A stretch of DNA of 64,000 bases, taken from the NCBI RefSeq assembly GCF_900113375.1, contig NZ_FOPC01000004.1, positions 1 to 64,000 on the forward strand, given 5' to 3'. Made by a program: the position numbers and the translations under genes. Of the stretch, positions 41,634-49,025 are shown piece by piece. Within the stretch, counting starts at the first letter, position 1, and the number at the start of each line of letters is the position of its first letter. The notes under the pieces were generated by a model. The model worked only from the letters and a program-made list of their open reading frames with translations, was not told where the DNA came from and did not search any database. This stretch comes from Algoriphagus hitonicola. Its GTDB lineage: Bacteria; Bacteroidota; Bacteroidia; Cytophagales; Cyclobacteriaceae.

Positions 41634-44600
41634 TTACTCCTCCTCATCCTTCCTTCTCACCGGCAACTGTGGCTGACCTAGACCCACACTACCTTTTAAA
41701 CCCGTAAGGGTTGCTTTCCACCAAGCATTAAAAATAAACTTGGATTGATCTCGCTTGAGATAAATATCGGAGCGAACCACATTTCCGAGGAATTTTCTGG
41801 GGTTATTATTTTTAATCAAGGTATTAGCCAAAAAGGTCATCCTTCCGAGTTTACCAGTGCCTTTGGTCAGACTTACACTATCCAAAAAAGAGACATTCAA
41901 CCCTTCATATCGAAAATCCATCCGTCCAAAAGCCTCTTCCTTATCCAATCGGAAACTCCAATCTCCTTTTTTTACGTCTCCTGAGTTAATCCTTAAAAAT
42001 GCTCCACGCGACAGGATATGATTAATCTGTTGGAGATTAAAGGTGTCCAATTGGGCAGTGACCTCCATCGGATAAGGGTCATCAAAGTGCATCTGAACCT
42101 GCAAATCCAATTCCCCTGTGCCCATCAATTTGGCAGAAGCCAGCACATAGCTATCATCTATGGGGTACTCCCGATTGGGTTCGCTGATGGCAAATGGCGT
42201 CAGGACTGCCTCCAAATCATGAAATTCCACTTTTCCCGGAGACATGGAATTCGCCACAAATTCCTGATATCGCACAAATCCCTGATGAAGAAACACCGAA
42301 TCTACACGAAGATTAAATGGAAGATTTTGAAGAATCTCTTGAGGCATAGGCTTAACCTGACCTTCCCTCAGCGGAATTCGCTTATCCCGGAGGACGTCAA
42401 GCTTCATCTGAGAGGCGATTACCCGCTTAGCTTGCATCCCCTCACCGGAAATCATTTGCTCCAAATCAATCGATTCAACCGAAACCCTTTCTAAATCCAA
42501 GCGTATCGCGTCCGTTTGATACCCTTTTTTTCGAAGATATTCATAGGTCCCCATGGCCGGTTTGTAGGCCACCCCCTCCAGCAACAAGTTGCGCTCCGAA
42601 AATGAAATCTTATCCGCACGGAAAATCTCCATACTGTCTTTACTATAGAGCTCATAATCCTTCACCGACAGCTTTAGATCTTCATCCAAGAAAAAATTAG
42701 CCTGCGCGCCAGATGAAAAATTAAGCAAGTCAAAATCCAAATCATTCAGGGCTAAATCTATCCCCTGAAACCCTAATCTCGGTATCGGCCCTTTCCCTTT
42801 TTGGTGAAATTCGATTTTTCCCTCGGTGATCATTAAATTTTGCAACATCAAAGTATGTACAAAAGCCTCCTCATTTTTAGACCTGGGACCAGATTGACCT
42901 GAAGAATTTTGGGTAGAAGCCGTATCCAAATACACGCGCATATCCGGACCAGATATCCGAATACTTTCCAGATTTACCCTTCCGGTACGTTGGATCTCCG
43001 CAAGGGTATTATTGCGTATTCCGAGTTCATCAATTTTTCCCGAAAAAAGTACCCCTTCGGAATTTTCCAAATCAACAGGCTCGATTTCCAATCCCAAAAA
43101 AACCGTCTCATCCCCTTTGTTATTGATCAAAACTTCGGAAAATCGGATTTGATGTAAACTATCCGGTAGCGCAAAAGAAAAATCATTGACTGCCAAAGAA
43201 ATCTCATCAAACAACTCCGCCAAAATCAACTCATTTTCCATTTCTTCATCCAGAAAAAAGTCAGACACTGACACATCAAAAGTCGCCTGAATGGATTCTA
43301 CCTCTTGGTTGGCTATTTGAAAAGTCAATCTCAAATCCGATTCTTTTGCCAAAATCTCCTGTATCCTAAGAAAATCAATAGACCTGCTAAAGGCTCCCGA
43401 ATTTCGATTGCTTCTTTCTTCTTTTCGGACAAACTCCGGCTCAATATCCAAGTTGATCTGACTCCCCTCCACACTCAATTTTGAAAGATCAAGTCTGTTT
43501 TCGTAAAGGAAATCCTCCAGATCCAATCCTTCCAACGTTAATTTTGGCAAGACCAAAGACAAGGCAAGTTTGCTTTCAAGCTGAGGTCCGGGATTGAGTA
43601 CGAGACTATCGATGGTGATCGCTTGGGTTTTGGTATTGTACTGCACATTTCCGGTACTGACATCATAGTCCCCTTTGGCCAGACTAAAGGAATATCCCGC
43701 TAGATTGAGAATGATTTCATCTGAAAAAAAACTGCGATCTATATCCAGTTCTTGTCCGGGTGCATAGTAAAAATCCCGGACAACAAGGGATAAATCCTCC
43801 TCGCTGAAACTCACTTCTTGTCTGCCGGTAATGTCTGTGAAATCCATTTTCCCCTGAAAAAATCCAACCGAATCAATCGACACCACTTTGAAATAATCGG
43901 AGAGCAAATCCTGAATTTCCTGCGAAGAGGCCGAAAATTCCCGATTTCCGCCAGAATTCCGCTTTCGAAGTTGATTATAAATCAGATGTGGCTGGGAAAC
44001 CAATATGTAATCGATCAATAGTTCCTCATCCAACAGTGCGGCCCGCACATCGATTCCCTGCAACTGAAAAACCGGAACAGTCAGGTCGATCGTTGCCGAT
44101 TTGCCATAGGTATCCAAGAGCTGCTGGATTTGATCGGGTTTTTCAGGTTTCAATGAAAAATTACTCACCTCGACCAGTCTCCGTTTGGAGTCGATCAAGA
44201 TTCGATCCGCCGTGAATAAGTGAAGGTTATCCCTCAATTTCAACTGATACTGATCCAGACTCAAGACTAATTCTTCTGCCAAAAGCAAATCCCGCATACT
44301 CGCTGATGATTCCGGTTTGATGAAAACATCCTCTAACTGAAGACTGAATTTTTCAAAATTCACATTATCACTCCGATCTCCGGATTCATTTTGAAATTGC
44401 ATGGTGCCTTCGTTGATCGAAAGCAAACCAATGTTTACCTCATCCAGGTACCCTTGCAAGAGTTTCTGTGCCGAAAATCTTCTCGTACTATCCCGCTGAG
44501 CTACGCGGTCGATAAACTCCACTTGAGGCTGATTCATCTCCAGCAGATCTACATCGAGTATCGCTTCATTGTAAAGCTTTTTCAGATTGGCTTCATCCAA

Positions 44601-45983
44601 TTGGAGCTTGGGCAAAGAAAGTCGAATCACCTGGCGTACGGTACTATCTTCCTGCCCCAGCAAAGGGGAAATTTCAAATCCCTCCACTTCTATTTGATCC
44701 AAAAAAGAAGAGATGGAAACCTTATCCCCATGAATCACATGGACGCCATCTGTCAGGTTAAGCGTGAAATCTTCCAATTCCATCGCTGCATCTTTTCCGT
44801 AAAAAAATTGATTTTCCCGTTTCGCAGCATCCCATCCCAGGTAGAAATCAGCCATTTTAAAATCCACATCCTCAATTTCGATTCTACTGCGTAGACTGTC
44901 TTCTGGATCAAGGGAAAAGAATTTTCCATTATTCACCGAAAACTCACGAATAGAAAAAGACTTTAAAATCCCATCAATCAAGGAATTTAAATCTCCCTCA
45001 CCCTTTACCTCCTCTTCCACGAGTTCCCTGGGGAAATGAGTCATCTGAAACTCCGGGTCATTGAGCACGATCTCCTCGATCTCAACTTCGGAAGTTAAAA
45101 ATGCCTGATTTAGATCAAAATTATTTACGTTCAACTCATCCAACTTAAGATCATAATAGGCCCGACTGGGAATTTCTCGGTTTGGACTTAATCGAAATCT
45201 CTGAATGTCAATTAGATTTTCCAGAGAACTGACTAATACTTTGTCCGCAAATATCACATGAACTTCATCGGAAAGCGGAAACTCGACCTGTTCCAGGTCA
45301 AACTCAAATCCCTTGGCATTAAATGGTGTATCCCAGTCTGTCCCAGTCGTCCAGTCCACATCCTCAATCATCACTTTCGTATTTTGAGCTTTTAGGGATT
45401 TTTGGCTCAGGAAATTCAGGAAAAACAAATCGGCATGATTGATCTCAATCGCTTCGATAAATAATCCTCCAAATGGTATCCGCTGAATACTTTTTTGAAT
45501 CTCCTCTTCTAATTCCTTGACCGGAGATCGCTTGACAAAGCCAGATGAAGAGTCAGCGGCCTCTTTATCCCTATTGGGTAAAATCAATCCCAAATCAGGA
45601 TTATCAAGTTCGATTTTGCCCACCCGAAAAACCTTTTCAGACCAATCATACCAAATATCCAATACAGCAATCTCATCAAGGGTGAAATCAAAAACCACCT
45701 GCTCACTACTGACTCGGTTTCCCTCGATAGGCTTCATCACGATGCCATTTAAAAAGACCCCTCTCCGCAAAAGGGAGAAGTTAAGCCGGTTAAAATCTAC
45801 CTGATAGACTCCCCCTGTAGCCTCATTTATTTTGTCTCGGGTCCAGTTAACTAAAAAAAAGTTAGATCCGAAATAAATCAAAAATTCCAAAAACAGAACC
45901 CCAAGAAAAATAATGGTAAAAATTCGGACAAATTTTTTCCGTAAGGGATGTTTGGATAGTTTTTCCTTGATGCGACGAATCAT
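41634..45983 (-). CDS. large AsmA/TamB-like periplasmic protein
   Basis: The 1449-residue protein has one N-terminal membrane helix (about 20-42) and a long beta-rich body with no cysteine motif. The sentence 'short strand - D..H.I.ADK..ISS - ...FxLxP - ...L.L..L.L' recurs six times at intervals of about 172-185 residues, for example LSDEVHVIFADKVLVSS, LTDGVHVIHGDKVSISS and LRDNLHLFTADRILIDS. The topology and repetition resemble AsmA/TamB/YhdP-type proteins, whose repeated beta grooves move phospholipids to the outer membrane. That role is an inference; the family call is moderate. The gene ends in a basic/acidic tail (VRRKDEEE) and lies just downstream of tRNA-like element 1 and its terminator. 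Confidence 0.65.
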   Translation of the reverse strand: MIRRIKEKLSKHPLRKKFVRIFTIIFLGVLFLEFLIYFGSNFFLVNWTRDKINEATGGVYQVDFNRLNFSLLRRGVFLNGIVMKPIEGNRVSSEQVVFDFTLDEIAVLDIWYDWSEKVFRVGKIELDNPDLGLILPNRDKEAADSSSGFVKRSPVKELEEEIQKSIQRIPFGGLFIEAIEINHADLFFLNFLSQKSLKAQNTKVMIEDVDWTTGTDWDTPFNAKGFEFDLEQVEFPLSDEVHVIFADKVLVSSLENLIDIQRFRLSPNREIPSRAYYDLKLDELNVNNFDLNQAFLTSEVEIEEIVLNDPEFQMTHFPRELVEEEVKGEGDLNSLIDGILKSFSIREFSVNNGKFFSLDPEDSLRSRIEIEDVDFKMADFYLGWDAAKRENQFFYGKDAAMELEDFTLNLTDGVHVIHGDKVSISSFLDQIEVEGFEISPLLGQEDSTVRQVIRLSLPKLQLDEANLKKLYNEAILDVDLLEMNQPQVEFIDRVAQRDSTRRFSAQKLLQGYLDEVNIGLLSINEGTMQFQNESGDRSDNVNFEKFSLQLEDVFIKPESSASMRDLLLAEELVLSLDQYQLKLRDNLHLFTADRILIDSKRRLVEVSNFSLKPEKPDQIQQLLDTYGKSATIDLTVPVFQLQGIDVRAALLDEELLIDYILVSQPHLIYNQLRKRNSGGNREFSASSQEIQDLLSDYFKVVSIDSVGFFQGKMDFTDITGRQEVSFSEEDLSLVVRDFYYAPGQELDIDRSFFSDEIILNLAGYSFSLAKGDYDVSTGNVQYNTKTQAITIDSLVLNPGPQLESKLALSLVLPKLTLEGLDLEDFLYENRLDLSKLSVEGSQINLDIEPEFVRKEERSNRNSGAFSRSIDFLRIQEILAKESDLRLTFQIANQEVESIQATFDVSVSDFFLDEEMENELILAELFDEISLAVNDFSFALPDSLHQIRFSEVLINNKGDETVFLGLEIEPVDLENSEGVLFSGKIDELGIRNNTLAEIQRTGRVNLESIRISGPDMRVYLDTASTQNSSGQSGPRSKNEEAFVHTLMLQNLMITEGKIEFHQKGKGPIPRLGFQGIDLALNDLDFDLLNFSSGAQANFFLDEDLKLSVKDYELYSKDSMEIFRADKISFSERNLLLEGVAYKPAMGTYEYLRKKGYQTDAIRLDLERVSVESIDLEQMISGEGMQAKRVIASQMKLDVLRDKRIPLREGQVKPMPQEILQNLPFNLRVDSVFLHQGFVRYQEFVANSMSPGKVEFHDLEAVLTPFAISEPNREYPIDDSYVLASAKLMGTGELDLQVQMHFDDPYPMEVTAQLDTFNLQQINHILSRGAFLRINSGDVKKGDWSFRLDKEEAFGRMDFRYEGLNVSFLDSVSLTKGTGKLGRMTFLANTLIKNNNPRKFLGNVVRSDIYLKRDQSKFIFNAWWKATLTGLKGSVGLGQPQLPVRRKDEEE

Positions 45984-46027
45984 CGGAGTGAATTTGATGT
46001 AAAATAACTAATTACTCCAGATAAAAG

Positions 46028-46053
46028 AAAAGCAGCACCGAGATGCTGCTTTT
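46028..46053 (-). terminator. intrinsic terminator after tRNA-like element 1
   Basis: AAAAGCAGCA (46028-46037), loop CCGAGA, TGCTGCTTTT (46044-46053): a 10-bp perfect stem, followed on the minus strand by CTTTT. It begins 6 nt after the 3' end of the tRNA-like element and lies before the start of the AsmA-like gene. Confidence 0.85.
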
Positions 46054-46058
46054 TATTG

Positions 46059-46195
46059 CTGTAGGAGAAGGATTCGAACCTCCACGGAGTAGTTAGGCTA
46101 TAGTCCGGTTTGTGCTACGCTTTTTCCCACCGATAATTATCGGTACTCCACCCCCGAGACAGGAGGGCTTGTCTGCCAATTTCAACATCCTACAG
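46059..46195 (-). ncRNA. tRNA-like element 1 (class II cloverleaf, oversized variable arm)
   Basis: On the minus strand the 137 nt read as acceptor CTGTAGGA/TCCTACAG (8 bp, or 7 bp with G73), D-arm TTG-AAATTGGCAGA-CAA exactly as in tRNA-Leu, anticodon arm CCCTC-CTGTCTC-GGGGG, and T-arm GGAGG-TTCGAAT-CCTTC. Between the last two lie 67 nt where a class II tRNA has about 12-24. This variable region opens with GGAGTA/TACTCC pairing and contains a perfect 16-nt palindrome (46129-46144). The formal anticodon would be GUC, but position 37 is U, unusual for a working tRNA. CCA is not encoded. It may be a modified tRNA, a tRNA-like regulatory RNA or a decayed gene. Confidence 0.6.
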
Positions 46196-46245
46196 TATAT
46201 ATCTTTAAAAGCTTTCGCTTTAAATCGCAATTTAAAAGCGACAAA

Positions 46246-46374
46246 TTAACTTACGAACCAAAAACCGATTCGTCTCCATTGCTTAATTCGCCGCTCTAAA
46301 ACTTCAGCTCTTCTTTTAAGAGCTTGTTTAATAGGTCTGAGATCAATTCGTTCGTTTGGAAGTGCTTGACTCAT
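46246..46374 (-). CDS. possible small basic protein (42 codons)
   Basis: This short ORF lies between the two tRNA-like elements on the same strand: ATG at 46374, TAA at 46246. It codes for MSQALPNERIDLRPIKQALK, then RRAEVLERRIKQWRRIGFWF, then VS. It is strongly basic, predicted helical, with an aromatic end. A -7-like box (TAATTTTG, 46391-46384) lies 10 nt upstream. I do not recognise it. Coding is supported only by the open frame and composition, so it may be spurious. Confidence 0.3.
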   Translation of the reverse strand: MSQALPNERIDLRPIKQALKRRAEVLERRIKQWRRIGFWFVS

Positions 46375-46383
46375 TCATTGAGT

Positions 46384-46391
46384 CAAAATTA
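46384..46391 (-). promoter_or_regulatory. possible -7 box, TAATTTTG
   Basis: TAATTTTG on the minus strand fits TAnnTTTG and could drive the 42-codon ORF and tRNA-like element 1. There is no TTG at the right -33 distance (the nearest is about 29 nt away), so this is weak. Confidence 0.25.
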
Positions 46392-46544
46392 GAAAAACCA
46401 TTTGTTTTTTAAAATTTTGACAAAGAAATAGTTTGTTTTTTTAAGTATTTTTATCAAAAACCGATTTTCATTAGCAATTCCGAATTCAAACGATAAAAAT
46501 TCTTTCTTCAATTAAGAAAATGGTAATGCGGAAAAGGCATAAAA

Positions 46545-46573
46545 AAAACCATGAAACAAAATTTCATGGTTTT
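46545..46573 (-). terminator. intrinsic terminator after tRNA-like element 2
   Basis: AAAACCATGAAA (46545-46556), loop CAAAA, TTTCATGGTTTT (46562-46573): a 12-bp perfect stem, continued on the minus strand by a run of Ts (eight in all). It starts about 30 nt after the 3' end of element 2. Confidence 0.88.
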
Positions 46574-46604
46574 AGTCAATTAACAATAAACCCAAAATAA
46601 CCTG

Positions 46605-46731
46605 CTGTAGGAGAAGGATTCGAACCTCCACGGAGTAGTTAGGCAAATTTACGAGCTCGCTAAAATGCTTTATTCTATGGTCTCCACCCCCGAGACAGGA
46701 GGGCTTGTCTGCCAATTTCAACATCCTACAG
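46605..46731 (-). ncRNA. tRNA-like element 2 (class II cloverleaf, oversized variable arm)
   Basis: The 127 nt share with element 1 an identical 5' part of 50 nt (acceptor, D-arm, anticodon arm and TGGAG) and an identical 3' part of 40 nt (GCCTAACTACTCCGT, T-arm, acceptor). The copy-specific middle is 37 nt (47 in element 1) with no clear similarity between copies, giving a variable arm of 57 nt. The arms add up exactly to the length: 8+2+17+1+17+57+17+8. It has its own promoter upstream and its own terminator downstream, so it is probably transcribed alone. As in element 1, anticodon loop CUGUCUC has U at position 37. Confidence 0.62.
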
Positions 46732-46783
46732 TATAGTGTTTAAAATCTGGTTAGCTTCCCTTTTGTTAGCTACCTTGATGATT

Positions 46784-46816
46784 CAAATATACAAGGATTC
46801 GATTCTTTTTTGCAAA
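46784..46816 (-). promoter_or_regulatory. promoter of tRNA-like element 2
   Basis: On the minus strand TTTG (46816-46813), a 21-nt spacer and TATATTTG (46791-46784) match the Bacteroidota -33/-7 consensus. Transcription would start near 46777, about 45 nt before the 5' end of the element, leaving a leader to be trimmed as for a tRNA precursor. Confidence 0.62.
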
Positions 46817-47014
46817 TTATTCAAGATTTAATCTAAATTTTTACATTATAATTAATGAAATCGATTGAATTTTAATTAATCATCAATTTTAAAACCAATT
46901 ACTTCTGCATAATTGACAAATCATTAATGAAATCCACAGGAATTGGAGTTTCTCAAAAAATGAGCTTTGAAATTTAGCTTTTTTCAAAATTTGGGAGAAA
47001 AAGATAGCTATCAA

Positions 47015-48049
47015 TCAATTGGAAATAACATAGCCTTCCCATTTTTCAAGAACTCGGAGAAAATCCTCGGGCAATTCTGAATCAAAAAATAACTTCTCCT
47101 GGGTTTTAGGATGAATGAATCCCAATGATTTGGCATGCAAGGCCTGTCTCGGCATAATCTCAAAACAATTTTGAATAAATGATTTATACTTCGAAAACTG
47201 AGTTCCTTTCCGGATTTTATCTCCTCCATACATGGCATCGTTAAACAACGGGTGGCCGAGGTATTTCATATGTGCCCGGATCTGATGAGTGCGGCCGGTT
47301 TCCAGATTGCACTGAATCAAACTCACATAGCGGAGCCTCTTCAGTACTTTCCAATGAGTGATCGCATGCTTTCCTTGGGAGCCATCCGGAAAGATGTCCA
47401 TCACTTTTCGGTCTTTAGCGCTTCTCCCTATATGTCCGGTCACCGTACCTTGATCTTCTTCCGGTTCACCCCAAACCAACGCATAATAGGTCCGCTCGAT
47501 CGTGTGATGAAAAAATTGCGCAGCCAAATGAGTCATGGATTCCTCATTTTTGGCAATGACTAAGAGCCCTGAGGTATCCTTGTCGATGCGGTGTACCAGT
47601 CCAGGACGGCCGGCATTTCCTTTCATCTCCGGTAAATGCTCAAAATGATACACCAAGCCATTGACCAATGTCCCAGTCCAGTTGCCATGAGCTGGATGAA
47701 CGACCATTCCCGGAGGCTTATTGACGACCATCAAATCCGTATCTTCATAAATAATATCCAAAGGAATATTTTCAGCCAACACCTCCGTCTCCCGGGGAGG
47801 CATGGTCAGCATAATCTTAATTTCGTCGTTGGGTTTGATTTTATAATTGGACTTAGTCGGCTGTCCATTGACCAGAATAGTCCCCGAATCTATGGATTGC
47901 TGAACCCTGTTTCTGGAAGCGTTGGCGATCTTATCGGTGATAAATTTATCGATGCGTGTTGAGGTTTGTCCTTTGTCCACCACCAGTCGATAGTGTTCGT
48001 AGAGTTCAACCTCCTCTTCATCAAAATCTTCTTCTCCCATTTTATTCAT
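47015..48049 (-). CDS. rluD: RluD-family 23S rRNA pseudouridine synthase
   Basis: The enzyme makes pseudouridines in 23S rRNA (RluD: helix 69). The 344 residues comprise an acidic N-terminus, an S4 domain (about 30-80, TRIDKFITDKIANASRNRVQ) and the catalytic domain with the family motif HRIDKDTSGL, where Asp156 is catalytic. RTHQIRAHMKYLGHPLFND is near residue 260. A start at codon 4 (MGEEDFDEE) is possible. It is divergent from the desulfhydrase-like gene with 52 nt between. RluD fits better than RluA or RluC because of the S4 domain and sequence style, but the target is inferred. Confidence 0.88.
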   Translation of the reverse strand: MNKMGEEDFDEEEVELYEHYRLVVDKGQTSTRIDKFITDKIANASRNRVQQSIDSGTILVNGQPTKSNYKIKPNDEIKIMLTMPPRETEVLAENIPLDIIYEDTDLMVVNKPPGMVVHPAHGNWTGTLVNGLVYHFEHLPEMKGNAGRPGLVHRIDKDTSGLLVIAKNEESMTHLAAQFFHHTIERTYYALVWGEPEEDQGTVTGHIGRSAKDRKVMDIFPDGSQGKHAITHWKVLKRLRYVSLIQCNLETGRTHQIRAHMKYLGHPLFNDAMYGGDKIRKGTQFSKYKSFIQNCFEIMPRQALHAKSLGFIHPKTQEKLFFDSELPEDFLRVLEKWEGYVISN

Positions 48050-48101
48050 GCCGTAAAATTAAAAGGATCTGCCTTAACTTTACTACACTTGACCATTTCA
48101 C

Positions 48102-49025
48102 ATGCTCGTAGCCAATCCCATCATCAATCAGCCCCTCGATCATCCAATTTTGGAAAAAAGCGGAATCGGGCTTTCCATCAAGCGACTTGATTGGGTTCAC
48201 CCGGAGGTCTCTGGCAATAAATTTTTCAAACTGAAATACAATCTGGAACAGGCTCAAAAGCAGTCAACTATCCCCATTTTGACTTTTGGAGGGGCGTATT
48301 CCAATCATATTCAAGCCACTGCAGCTGCCGCAAATTCACTAAATCTCAAATCGATCGGGGTGATTCGGGGTGAAGAAACCCTACCCCTAAATCCCACCTT
48401 GGAAGCTGCCCAAAAAAATGGAATGAAATTCCATTATCTGAACCGGTCAGACTATCGAAAGAAAACTTCTCCTGAAATTCTGAAGGACTTCAGAGAGCGA
48501 TTTGGTGAATATTATCTTATTCCCGAGGGAGGAACCAATAGTTTTGCCATCAAAGGCACAGCTGAGATTTTGGAGCCGGAGGACCATAACTTTGATCTGC
48601 TGACGGTATCCATCGGGACTGGAGGAACTTTTGCCGGAATTTTAAACCAAATGAATTCTCAGCAAAAACTTCTCGGATTTTCCGCCTTGAAAGGAGAGTT
48701 TATTCATGCCGAAATTCAATTACTCCTTGAAAAATACGATATGATCCCAAAGGGAAAATATGAAATCATCACCGCCTATCATTTTGGAGGCTATGCCAAC
48801 TATCAGCAGGCCTTGATCGATTTTATTTGGTGGTTTTATGAGCAATTTGGCATTCCGCTGGACCCGATTTACACGGGCAAACATTTTTTTGGAATCTGGG
48901 ATAAAATTGAAAAGGGTGAATTTCCAAAAGGGACCAAAATATTAAGTATTCATACAGGAGGCCTACAGGGAATCGCCGGTTTTACCGAGAGAACTGGAAT
49001 TAAGCTCCCACCTCTTTCAGGGTAA
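48102..49025 (+). CDS. PLP-dependent D-cysteine desulfhydrase / ACC deaminase-like protein
   Basis: Fold type II PLP enzyme of 307 residues. SGNKFFKLKYNLEQA (37-51) holds the likely PLP lysine Lys40, and TFGGAYSNHIQATAAAA is the neighbouring substrate/PLP loop with the conserved SNH. The glycine-rich phosphate site is VSIGTGGTFAGIL. Family members degrade D-cysteine to pyruvate, sulphide and ammonia, or open 1-aminocyclopropane-1-carboxylate; in Bacteroidota the substrate is mostly untested. The usual R after GNK is replaced by F. Its 3' end overlaps the convergent AlbA_2 gene by 26 bp. Confidence 0.85.
   Translation: MLVANPIINQPLDHPILEKSGIGLSIKRLDWVHPEVSGNKFFKLKYNLEQAQKQSTIPILTFGGAYSNHIQATAAAANSLNLKSIGVIRGEETLPLNPTLEAAQKNGMKFHYLNRSDYRKKTSPEILKDFRERFGEYYLIPEGGTNSFAIKGTAEILEPEDHNFDLLTVSIGTGGTFAGILNQMNSQQKLLGFSALKGEFIHAEIQLLLEKYDMIPKGKYEIITAYHFGGYANYQQALIDFIWWFYEQFGIPLDPIYTGKHFFGIWDKIEKGEFPKGTKILSIHTGGLQGIAGFTERTGIKLPPLSG

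What the first reader, a model, noticed from the sequence alone, without database searches (positions are those of the whole stretch)
46059..46731. Twin tRNA-like RNAs with identical ends, different middles and giant variable arms
Seen: two minus-strand elements share a 50-nt 5' part and a 40-nt 3' part without a mismatch, but their middles (47 and 37 nt) do not match. All cloverleaf arms can be drawn: acceptor TGTAGGA/TCCTACA, D-arm identical in layout to tRNA-Leu, anticodon arm CCCTC/GGGGG, T-arm with TTCGAAT. The variable arm is 67 or 57 nt, where class II tRNAs have about 12-24. Anticodon loop CUGUCUC gives formal anticodon GUC with U37, where working tRNAs carry a purine. Perfect conservation of both ends beside divergent middles suggests selection on the tRNA-like body. 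Inference: a tRNA-like family with a variable payload loop, perhaps regulatory or a tRNA with an unusual role.
Basis: partly seen in the sequence, partly recalled or inferred. Interest (0 to 1): 0.82.

Follow-up and report, generated by a model that had tools for sequence, protein, structure and literature searches.

The report
Non-decoding tRNA, probably for making asparagine
Many Bacteroidota bacteria and their large phages carry an apparently undescribed tRNA-shaped RNA with a giant side arm that occurs together with the enzyme turning tRNA-bound aspartate into asparagine, which suggests a tRNA used as a workbench for making asparagine rather than for reading codons.

Summary
In detail: two minus-strand RNAs (46605-46730, 46059-46194) form cloverleaves with 57- and 67-nt variable regions. 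They belong to a large family with no Rfam match and strong covariation (24 pairs, 99.5% of cells paired, 16 pairs changed on both sides), found in Cytophagales, Chitinophagales, Saprospiraceae and tRNA arrays of large phages.

Its near-invariant bases are aspartate determinants (G34 U35 C36, G73, G2-C71; C38 recalled) joined with U1-A72, the pair GatCAB reads in tRNA-Asn. An AsnC-like regulator lies divergently upstream at 76 of 136 bacterial places. gatB is present in all 40 element-positive genomes of the phylum sample; within the class 23/26 gatB+ genomes have the element against 0/57 gatB-. AsnRS occurs in 40/40 genomes tested, GlnRS in 36/40. E. coli-type AsnB or AsnA occurs in 1/23 element-positive but 15/17 element-negative genomes, although other AsnB-like enzymes are common in both.

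Best reading: a dedicated non-decoding tRNA, charged with Asp by ordinary AspRS and amidated by GatCAB to supply asparagine. Charging, amidation and release are inferred, not shown.

The parts
46605..46730 (-). tRNA-like RNA copy 1 (126 nt, U1 to G73); CGAGCTCG apical loop in the V arm
   Evidence: sequence; CM match 134.4 bits; covariation
46059..46194 (-). tRNA-like RNA copy 2 (136 nt, U1 to G73); V arm holds an inserted palindromic repeat
   Evidence: sequence; CM match 120.7 bits
46687..46703 (-). copy 1 anticodon arm, loop CUGUCUC (G34 U35 C36, C38)
46151..46167 (-). copy 2 anticodon arm, identical to copy 1
46630..46686 (-). copy 1 variable region (57 nt): 4-bp base stem, ATAAA/CTAA internal loop, P2 hairpin
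46084..46150 (-). copy 2 variable region (67 nt)
46579..46602 (-). conserved trailer GGTTATTTTGGGTTTATTGTTAAT after copy 1, function unknown
   Evidence: one exact copy in 35 of the 36 genus genomes searched
46545..46573 (-). terminator-like hairpin after copy 1
   Evidence: 13-bp stem, T tail
46028..46053 (-). terminator-like hairpin after copy 2
   Evidence: 11-bp stem, T tail
46784..46816 (-). Bacteroidota-type promoter-like TTTG...TATATTTG upstream of copy 1
   Evidence: read from sequence; consensus recalled, not tested; the sigma-70 scan found no excess over shuffles

Best explanation
Each element is a stable tRNA-like RNA that does not decode. It combines the aspartate identity set (so that the ordinary AspRS can charge it with Asp) with the U1-A72 pair that GatCAB reads in tRNA-Asn (so that the Asp can be amidated on the RNA to Asn). 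It therefore serves as a dedicated carrier for tRNA-dependent asparagine synthesis in Bacteroidota that have AsnRS and mostly lack AsnA and E. coli-type AsnB. Unusual bases around the anticodon and the giant V arm probably keep it off the ribosome, where a GUC anticodon bearing Asn would misread Asp codons. An AsnC-like regulator, divergent upstream in many lineages, probably adjusts its transcription to asparagine. Large phages carry it with their tRNAs, presumably to keep asparagine supplied. Shown here: structure, family, identity bases, gene neighbour, co-occurrence. Inferred: charging, amidation, release of free Asn, exclusion from the ribosome, regulation.
For: Covariation. In 268 unique elements U1-A72 in 197/198 bacterial and 66/70 viral, G73 in 267/268, G34 in 264/268. 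The finder imposed G2 and 35-38, so these rest on other sets: G2-C71 26/26; in 23 elements located by the CM, G2-C71, U35, C36, C38 and G73 in 23/23, G34 in 20/23, U1-A72 in 22/23 (the exception lacks its 3' half), while 32, 33 and 37 vary. Determinants as in PMC9976931 and PMC4206432 (passages; C38 recalled). ARAGORN calls two phage elements with a short V region tRNA-Asp(gtc). AsnC-like gene divergent upstream at 76/136 places, 66/110 loci (for two and one examples). gatB in 40/40 element-positive genomes of the phylum sample; class 23/26 vs 0/57; family 160/173 vs 6/23 as searched, 163/173 vs 3/23 after CM recheck. AsnRS 40/40, GlnRS 36/40. E. coli-type AsnB: element+ 0/23, element- 12/17; AsnA 1/23 vs 8/17; either 1/23 vs 15/17, p=5e-8. 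AsnA in the wider set: 3/51 element+ vs 9/29 element-.
Against: No biochemistry. G1-C72, strictly conserved in bacterial tRNA-Asp and important for its charging (PMC9976931), is replaced, and position 10 is A, T or G rather than the recalled G10, so AspRS might charge it poorly. Other AEB-family enzymes over the TIGR01536 cut-off exist in 20/23 element-positive genomes, own genome included (two), and could make asparagine; AsnA coexists in G078, G353 and G357. gatB without element: 13 (10 after recheck) in the family, e.g. G128 and G027 whose genus-mates have it; 3 in the class; and outside the class nearly all gatB+ genomes. Element without gatB after recheck: G062 (52% complete), G119 (60%), G155 (94%, 880 contigs). 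Some members carry U34 or C34 (G057, G171, G092, G162, G357, G574), Glu-type anticodons; eight f4 elements have a T-T mismatch in the anticodon stem and three of those a purine 37. Four element-positive genomes lack GlnRS and may need GatCAB for Gln. The window locus has no AsnC neighbour. Genomes are related, so p-values overstate independence.
Confidence: 0.6

Rival explanations
1. It is charged with Asp and amidated, but the Asn-RNA is a donor for another reaction (cell envelope, peptide ligase, protein tagging) or a sensor of Asn/Gln, not a route to free asparagine.
For: Same identity and co-occurrence evidence; AsnC-like neighbour; other AEB enzymes are present in 20/23 element-positive genomes.
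Against: Near-exclusion with AsnA/E. coli-type AsnB (1/23 vs 15/17) points to free Asn; among the neighbour clusters that I looked at, no conserved acceptor-side enzyme stood out.
Confidence: 0.16
2. It is a real decoding tRNA (Asp type) with an oversized V arm.
For: Complete cloverleaf, G34 U35 C36, tRNA genes in all six viral loci scanned; ARAGORN names short-V forms tRNA-Asp; three elements have G37.
Against: U33 is missing in 33/268, 37 is a pyrimidine in 20/23, U1-A72 instead of G1-C72, Glu-type anticodons in some members, phage contigs L011 and L014 carry a normal tRNA-Asp(gtc) as well, co-loss with gatB unexplained.
Confidence: 0.06
3. It is a trans-acting regulatory or decoy RNA (sponge for a synthetase, bait for anticodon nucleases) whose link with gatB is indirect.
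For: Stand-alone units with terminator-like hairpins and conserved trailers, carriage by phages.
Against: Does not predict U1-A72 plus Asp identity, nor the joint variation of element, gatB and AsnA/AsnB within single genera.
Confidence: 0.13
4. GatCAB in these genomes acts on ordinary tRNA-Asn or tRNA-Gln with a relaxed AspRS or GluRS, as in Bdellovibrio, and the element only shares its distribution.
For: That pathway is shown in Bdellovibrio and is offered for a group of genera that includes Bacteroidetes (PMC4206432, passages read).
Against: Does not explain why the element carries both identity sets or is missing together with gatB in members of genera g15, g31, g36 and g50.
Confidence: 0.05

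Closest known systems
tRNA-dependent asparagine synthesis by GatCAB (asparagine transamidosome; Deinococcus, Thermus, Bdellovibrio, Staphylococcus)
   Same: Asp on a U1-A72 RNA amidated by GatCAB in genomes that also have AsnRS and lack asparagine synthetase
   Different: Known systems use decoding tRNA-Asn and a relaxed or second AspRS; here a separate RNA with its own Asp anticodon would let the ordinary AspRS do it
Bacterial tRNA-Asp
   Same: G34 U35 C36 C38, G73, G2-C71
   Different: U1-A72, class-II-like D arm, V region mostly 39-131 nt, positions 32, 33 and 37 variable
allo-tRNA, tRNA-Sec and selC* tRNA-Cys (PMC7609411, passages read)
   Same: unusual tRNA-like RNAs with a long V arm; some allo-tRNAs have GUC anticodons
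   Different: those have 8/4, 9/3 or 13-bp acceptor branches; this one is 7/5 with a far longer, often branched V arm
tmRNA
   Same: tRNA-like ends, a structured domain, carried by phages (one viral locus, L017, has both)
   Different: tmRNA lacks an anticodon arm (recalled); here the anticodon stem is present and covaries; I did not search for a tag reading frame

Membership tests
tRNA-dependent asparagine synthesis (GatCAB route) | carrier RNA with U1-A72 | tested here: met
   197/198 bacterial, 66/70 viral unique elements
tRNA-dependent asparagine synthesis (GatCAB route) | GatCAB encoded in the genome | tested here: met
   gatB only was searched: 40/40 element-positive genomes; own genome G000:C19, intact 486 aa; gatA and gatC not searched; three fragmentary family genomes have the element without gatB
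tRNA-dependent asparagine synthesis (GatCAB route) | RNA is aspartylated by an AspRS of the cell | not testable with these tools
   identity bases present; G1-C72 absent
tRNA-dependent asparagine synthesis (GatCAB route) | no other asparagine synthetase | tested here: inconclusive
   AsnA and E. coli-type AsnB absent in 22/23 element-positive genomes, but other AEB enzymes over cut-off in 20/23
decoding tRNA-Asp | G1-C72, purine 37 and U33 | tested here: not met
   U1-A72; 37 pyrimidine in 20/23; U33 missing in 33/268
decoding tRNA-Asp | GUC anticodon, C38, G73 | tested here: met
   G34 264/268, G73 267/268; in 23 CM-found elements G34 20, U35 C36 C38 23, G73 23
allo-tRNA / tRNA-Sec | 8/4, 9/3 or 13-bp acceptor branch | tested here: not met
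   7-bp acceptor and 5-bp T stem by covariation
tmRNA | no anticodon arm | tested here: not met
   anticodon stem covaries; ARAGORN found no tmRNA in the window
Rfam release 15 families (tRNA RF00005 included) | match at gathering score | tested here: not met
   window 44000-49000: only chance-level matches, two of them (RF04351, 18.4 bits against 68, opposite strand) overlapping the elements; five loci: none on an element

The most novel reading that the evidence does not exclude
The first dedicated, non-decoding transfer RNA used for amino-acid synthesis: a tRNA whose two ends carry the identity signals of two enzymes (AspRS at the anticodon, GatCAB at the first pair) so that aspartate is loaded, amidated and released as asparagine without touching translation, under an AsnC-type sensor, and taken up by large phages.
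Probability: 0.55. Interest if true: 0.95.

Novelty: new variant of a known kind. Interest (0 to 1): 0.88.

Why it matters
It would answer why many Bacteroidota keep GatCAB although they have AsnRS and mostly GlnRS, and how those without AsnA or E. coli-type AsnB make asparagine; a 2014 survey (PMC4206432, passages read) listed Bacteroidetes among genera with AsnRS, GlnRS and GatCAB but no asparagine synthetase and pointed to tRNA-Asn. A tRNA freed from decoding to act as a metabolic cofactor would be a new job for tRNA, and one with a simple genetic test. It also adds a widespread RNA family, with phage carriage, that ARAGORN and Rfam missed here.

Tried and rejected
Ordinary tRNA with an intron: rejected, the V arm base stem covaries as a class II arm. 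Rfam families: none. Named phages and plasmids: no blastn match with one query each. A mobile element: not favoured, since many bacterial loci share the AsnC-like neighbour. Kissing-loop dimers as the general principle: palindromes of 6 or more in the 3' linker in 20/26 non-redundant viral long-type elements (shuffles mean 7.5, max 15) but 11/46 bacterial long-type (mean 9.6) and 18/51 short-type (mean 18.5), so at most a phage feature. Folding energy as evidence: not significant. The raw tally (349/395) is therefore not an element count; I counted 40 from a list that was cut at about 55 bits, in a search that scored only eight candidates per genome, so element-negatives there can be misses. 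Literature searches: no listing that I recognised as describing this RNA; only open-access papers are held.

Limits of the counts: the finder behind the 268 set required G2, at least six acceptor pairs and TCTC at 35-38, and the collection scans required GTCTC, so those bases are partly imposed there; searches are the checks. The 23 elements were not drawn at random: they are those that an earlier print had missed plus rechecked discordant genomes. Of 120 genome-contig loci 110 held a full element by the finder; five more look like truncated or altered members by eye (L124, L177, L185, L196, L203); five (L114, L139, L154, L162, L181) are chance hits in other phyla. E. coli-type AsnB was read from the split TIGR01536 match in 12 genomes and confirmed with NF006949 for three of them; five other AEB proteins from four element-positive genomes fell below that model's cut-off. 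The AsnA match of G056 is just under its cut-off. The family sets were typed from the rows, unlisted negatives by complement; as searched, one of 13 gatB- genomes at least 95% complete (G042, blastn E 0.006) counted as element-positive, after recheck none.

Full report
The finding. Two minus-strand elements at 46730-46605 and 46194-46059 share their ends and differ in the middle. Both can be drawn as full cloverleaves: 7-bp acceptor, 3-bp D stem with class-II-type loop, 5-bp anticodon stem, 5-bp T stem with TTCGAAT loop, and a variable region of 57 or 67 nt. Each is followed by a terminator-like hairpin. ARAGORN reports no tRNA and Rfam only chance-level matches. The own genome holds only these two copies by blastn; the further model hits listed there are tRNA-sized and weak. 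The same-genus genome G082 and a public record of Algoriphagus boseongensis have a contig of the same length (152,570), so the window is probably Algoriphagus.

A real family. A blastn search with copy 1 found matches in 166 of 196 genomes of the bacterial family, 1-11 per genome (the weakest, G042 at E 0.006, is not a member by the model). An alignment of 26 bacterial and viral members gives 99.5% paired cells over 24 pairs, 16 pairs changed on both sides, with no shuffle as good. A covariance model found members in 40 of 395 phylum genomes by my cut (65 bits or more and over 105 nt); the search was a filtered one that scored eight candidates per genome, so negatives are not certain. In six viral loci scanned, 1-16 tRNA genes were found. 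Some bacterial loci hold small arrays.

Anatomy of the V arm. The base stem (GGGG/CCCC and variants) covaries. Then comes a shared internal loop ATAAA/CTAA (both anchors in 125 of 140 non-redundant elements) and a helix P2: its first pair forms in 113 of 125 against a shuffled mean of 57.5 (C-G, G-C, T-A), the second in 69 (mean 46.4) and the third in 55 (39.6); the fourth is no better than chance (40 against 43). Long forms add a GGTTGACCAC hairpin and a variable helix. Part of the difference between the two window copies is an inserted palindromic repeat, which relatives carry at other places too.

What is conserved. Among 268 unique elements U1-A72 occurs in 263 and G73 in 267, followed by C in all; G34 in 264. 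The finder imposed G2 and 35-38, so I checked 23 elements located by the model: G2-C71, U35, C36, C38 and G73 in 23 of 23, G34 in 20, U1-A72 in 22 (the other, G176, has lost its 3' half), while 32, 33 and 37 vary. G34, U35, C36, G73 and G2-C71 are aspartate determinants, U1-A72 is the pair by which GatCAB knows tRNA-Asn, and G1-C72 and U20a prevent amidation of tRNA-Asp (PMC9976931, passages; U1-A72 also PMC4206432). C38 as a determinant is recalled. The RNA therefore combines two identity sets that normal tRNAs keep apart. Against this, it lacks the G1-C72 pair that the same review calls crucial for aspartate identity.

Neighbour. Clustering the genes beside 136 bacterial element places showed one recurrent partner: an AsnC-like regulator, divergent and upstream at 76 places (the nearest upstream gene at 75 of them), in 66 of 110 loci. 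Two examples scored best against the AsnC model of NCBIfam (E 3e-47 and 1e-49, below its strict cut-off), and one matched E. coli AsnC 2CG4 best in the PDB. AsnC is the asparagine-responsive regulator of E. coli asnA (recalled). The window locus lacks this arrangement.

The prediction and its test. If GatCAB is the partner, genomes with the element must have gatB. In the phylum sample all 40 do. Within the class, 23 of 26 gatB-positive genomes have the element and 0 of 57 gatB-negative ones do (p=1e-17). In the family the table as searched is 160/13/6/17 (element+ gatB+, element- gatB+, element+ gatB-, element- gatB-; p=6e-12), and 163/10/3/20 after the covariance-model recheck (p=4e-17); the three remaining element-positive gatB-negative genomes are incomplete or fragmented, and after recheck none of the 13 gatB-negative genomes at least 95% complete has the element. 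Element and gatB vary together inside genera g15, g31, g36 and g50, so this is not only a deep split; but G128 and G027 have gatB and no element found while genus-mates have both. Outside the class gatB is common and, of those genomes, only three of one family (G463, G471, G528) passed my cut for the element. p-values ignore relatedness.

Why it is probably not for translation. AsnRS is present in 40 of 40 genomes tested and GlnRS in 36 of 40, the four without it being element-positive; so in most of these genomes GatCAB should not be needed for Asn-tRNA or Gln-tRNA. The E. coli-type AsnB (split TIGR01536 match, open frames of 549-578 aa; three confirmed as asparagine synthase B, one of them with PDB 1CT9 as best match) occurs in 12 of 17 element-negative and 0 of 23 element-positive genomes; AsnA in 8 of 17 and 1 of 23; either in 15 of 17 and 1 of 23. 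In all 80 genomes searched for AsnA it occurs in 3 of 51 element-positive and 9 of 29 element-negative. Two element-negative genomes (G212, G307) have neither. Element-positive genomes mostly have other AEB-family amidotransferases (20 of 23 over the cut-off, own genome two); three (G041, G057, G438) have none over the cut-off and no AsnA.

Reading. The economical explanation is a dedicated carrier for tRNA-dependent asparagine synthesis. The known route in Bdellovibrio, Deinococcus and Thermus uses tRNA-Asn and a relaxed or second AspRS (PMC4206432, passages). Here a separate RNA with an aspartate anticodon would let the ordinary AspRS load it, at the price of having to stay off the ribosome. 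The V arm and the loop variants may serve that, or docking to GatCAB. How Asn is released is unknown.

Open points. Members with U34 or C34 look Glu-like and may carry Glu to Gln. Some f4 elements have C37 or G37 and a T-T mismatch in the anticodon stem. Viral long-type forms have palindromic linkers of changing sequence. Family-specific trailers are conserved. None of the chemistry has been shown.

Noticed in passing
window 46569-46602 (minus): Trailer GGTTATTTTGGGTTTATTGTTAATTGACTAAA after copy 1; its 24-mer has one exact copy in 35 of 36 genus genomes. A different conserved trailer (TTTTAGTTTGTTGATGAAGTGTAAT) follows several elements of Dyadobacter and Spirosoma. Possible processed sRNA; function unknown.
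   Followed up: partly
window copy 2 V arm; L027, L034, L041: Palindromic repeat like TCCCGATAGCTATCGGGA inserted into elements, in L034 and L041 replacing part of the D/anticodon arms.
   Followed up: no
L008, L010, L219, L227, L241, L262 and other viral loci: Palindromes of 6-12 nt with changing sequence after the GGTNGACCAC hairpin in 20 of 26 non-redundant viral long-type elements; possible homodimer contact.
   Followed up: partly
L229, L241, L290, L256, L272, L274, L281: Extra stretches or hairpins inserted in the D loop of some viral elements.
   Followed up: no
leaders of elements in e.g. L070, L083, L101: AGTTCTT shortly upstream of the element resembles a boxA antitermination signal (recalled consensus; seen, not counted).
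   Followed up: no
L073, L079, L081, L346, L347, L348: Anticodon loops CTTTCTC or CTCTCTC: Glu-type U34/C34 instead of G34.
   Followed up: no
L086, L087, L088, L096: Elements of one family (f4) with loops TTGTCCC or TTGTCGC and a T-T mismatch in the anticodon stem.
   Followed up: no
L354: Element of G176 that keeps its 5' half but has lost the 3' half; probably a decayed copy.
   Followed up: no
L238: Phage element with only a 26-nt V region, of the kind that ARAGORN names tRNA-Asp(gtc).
   Followed up: no
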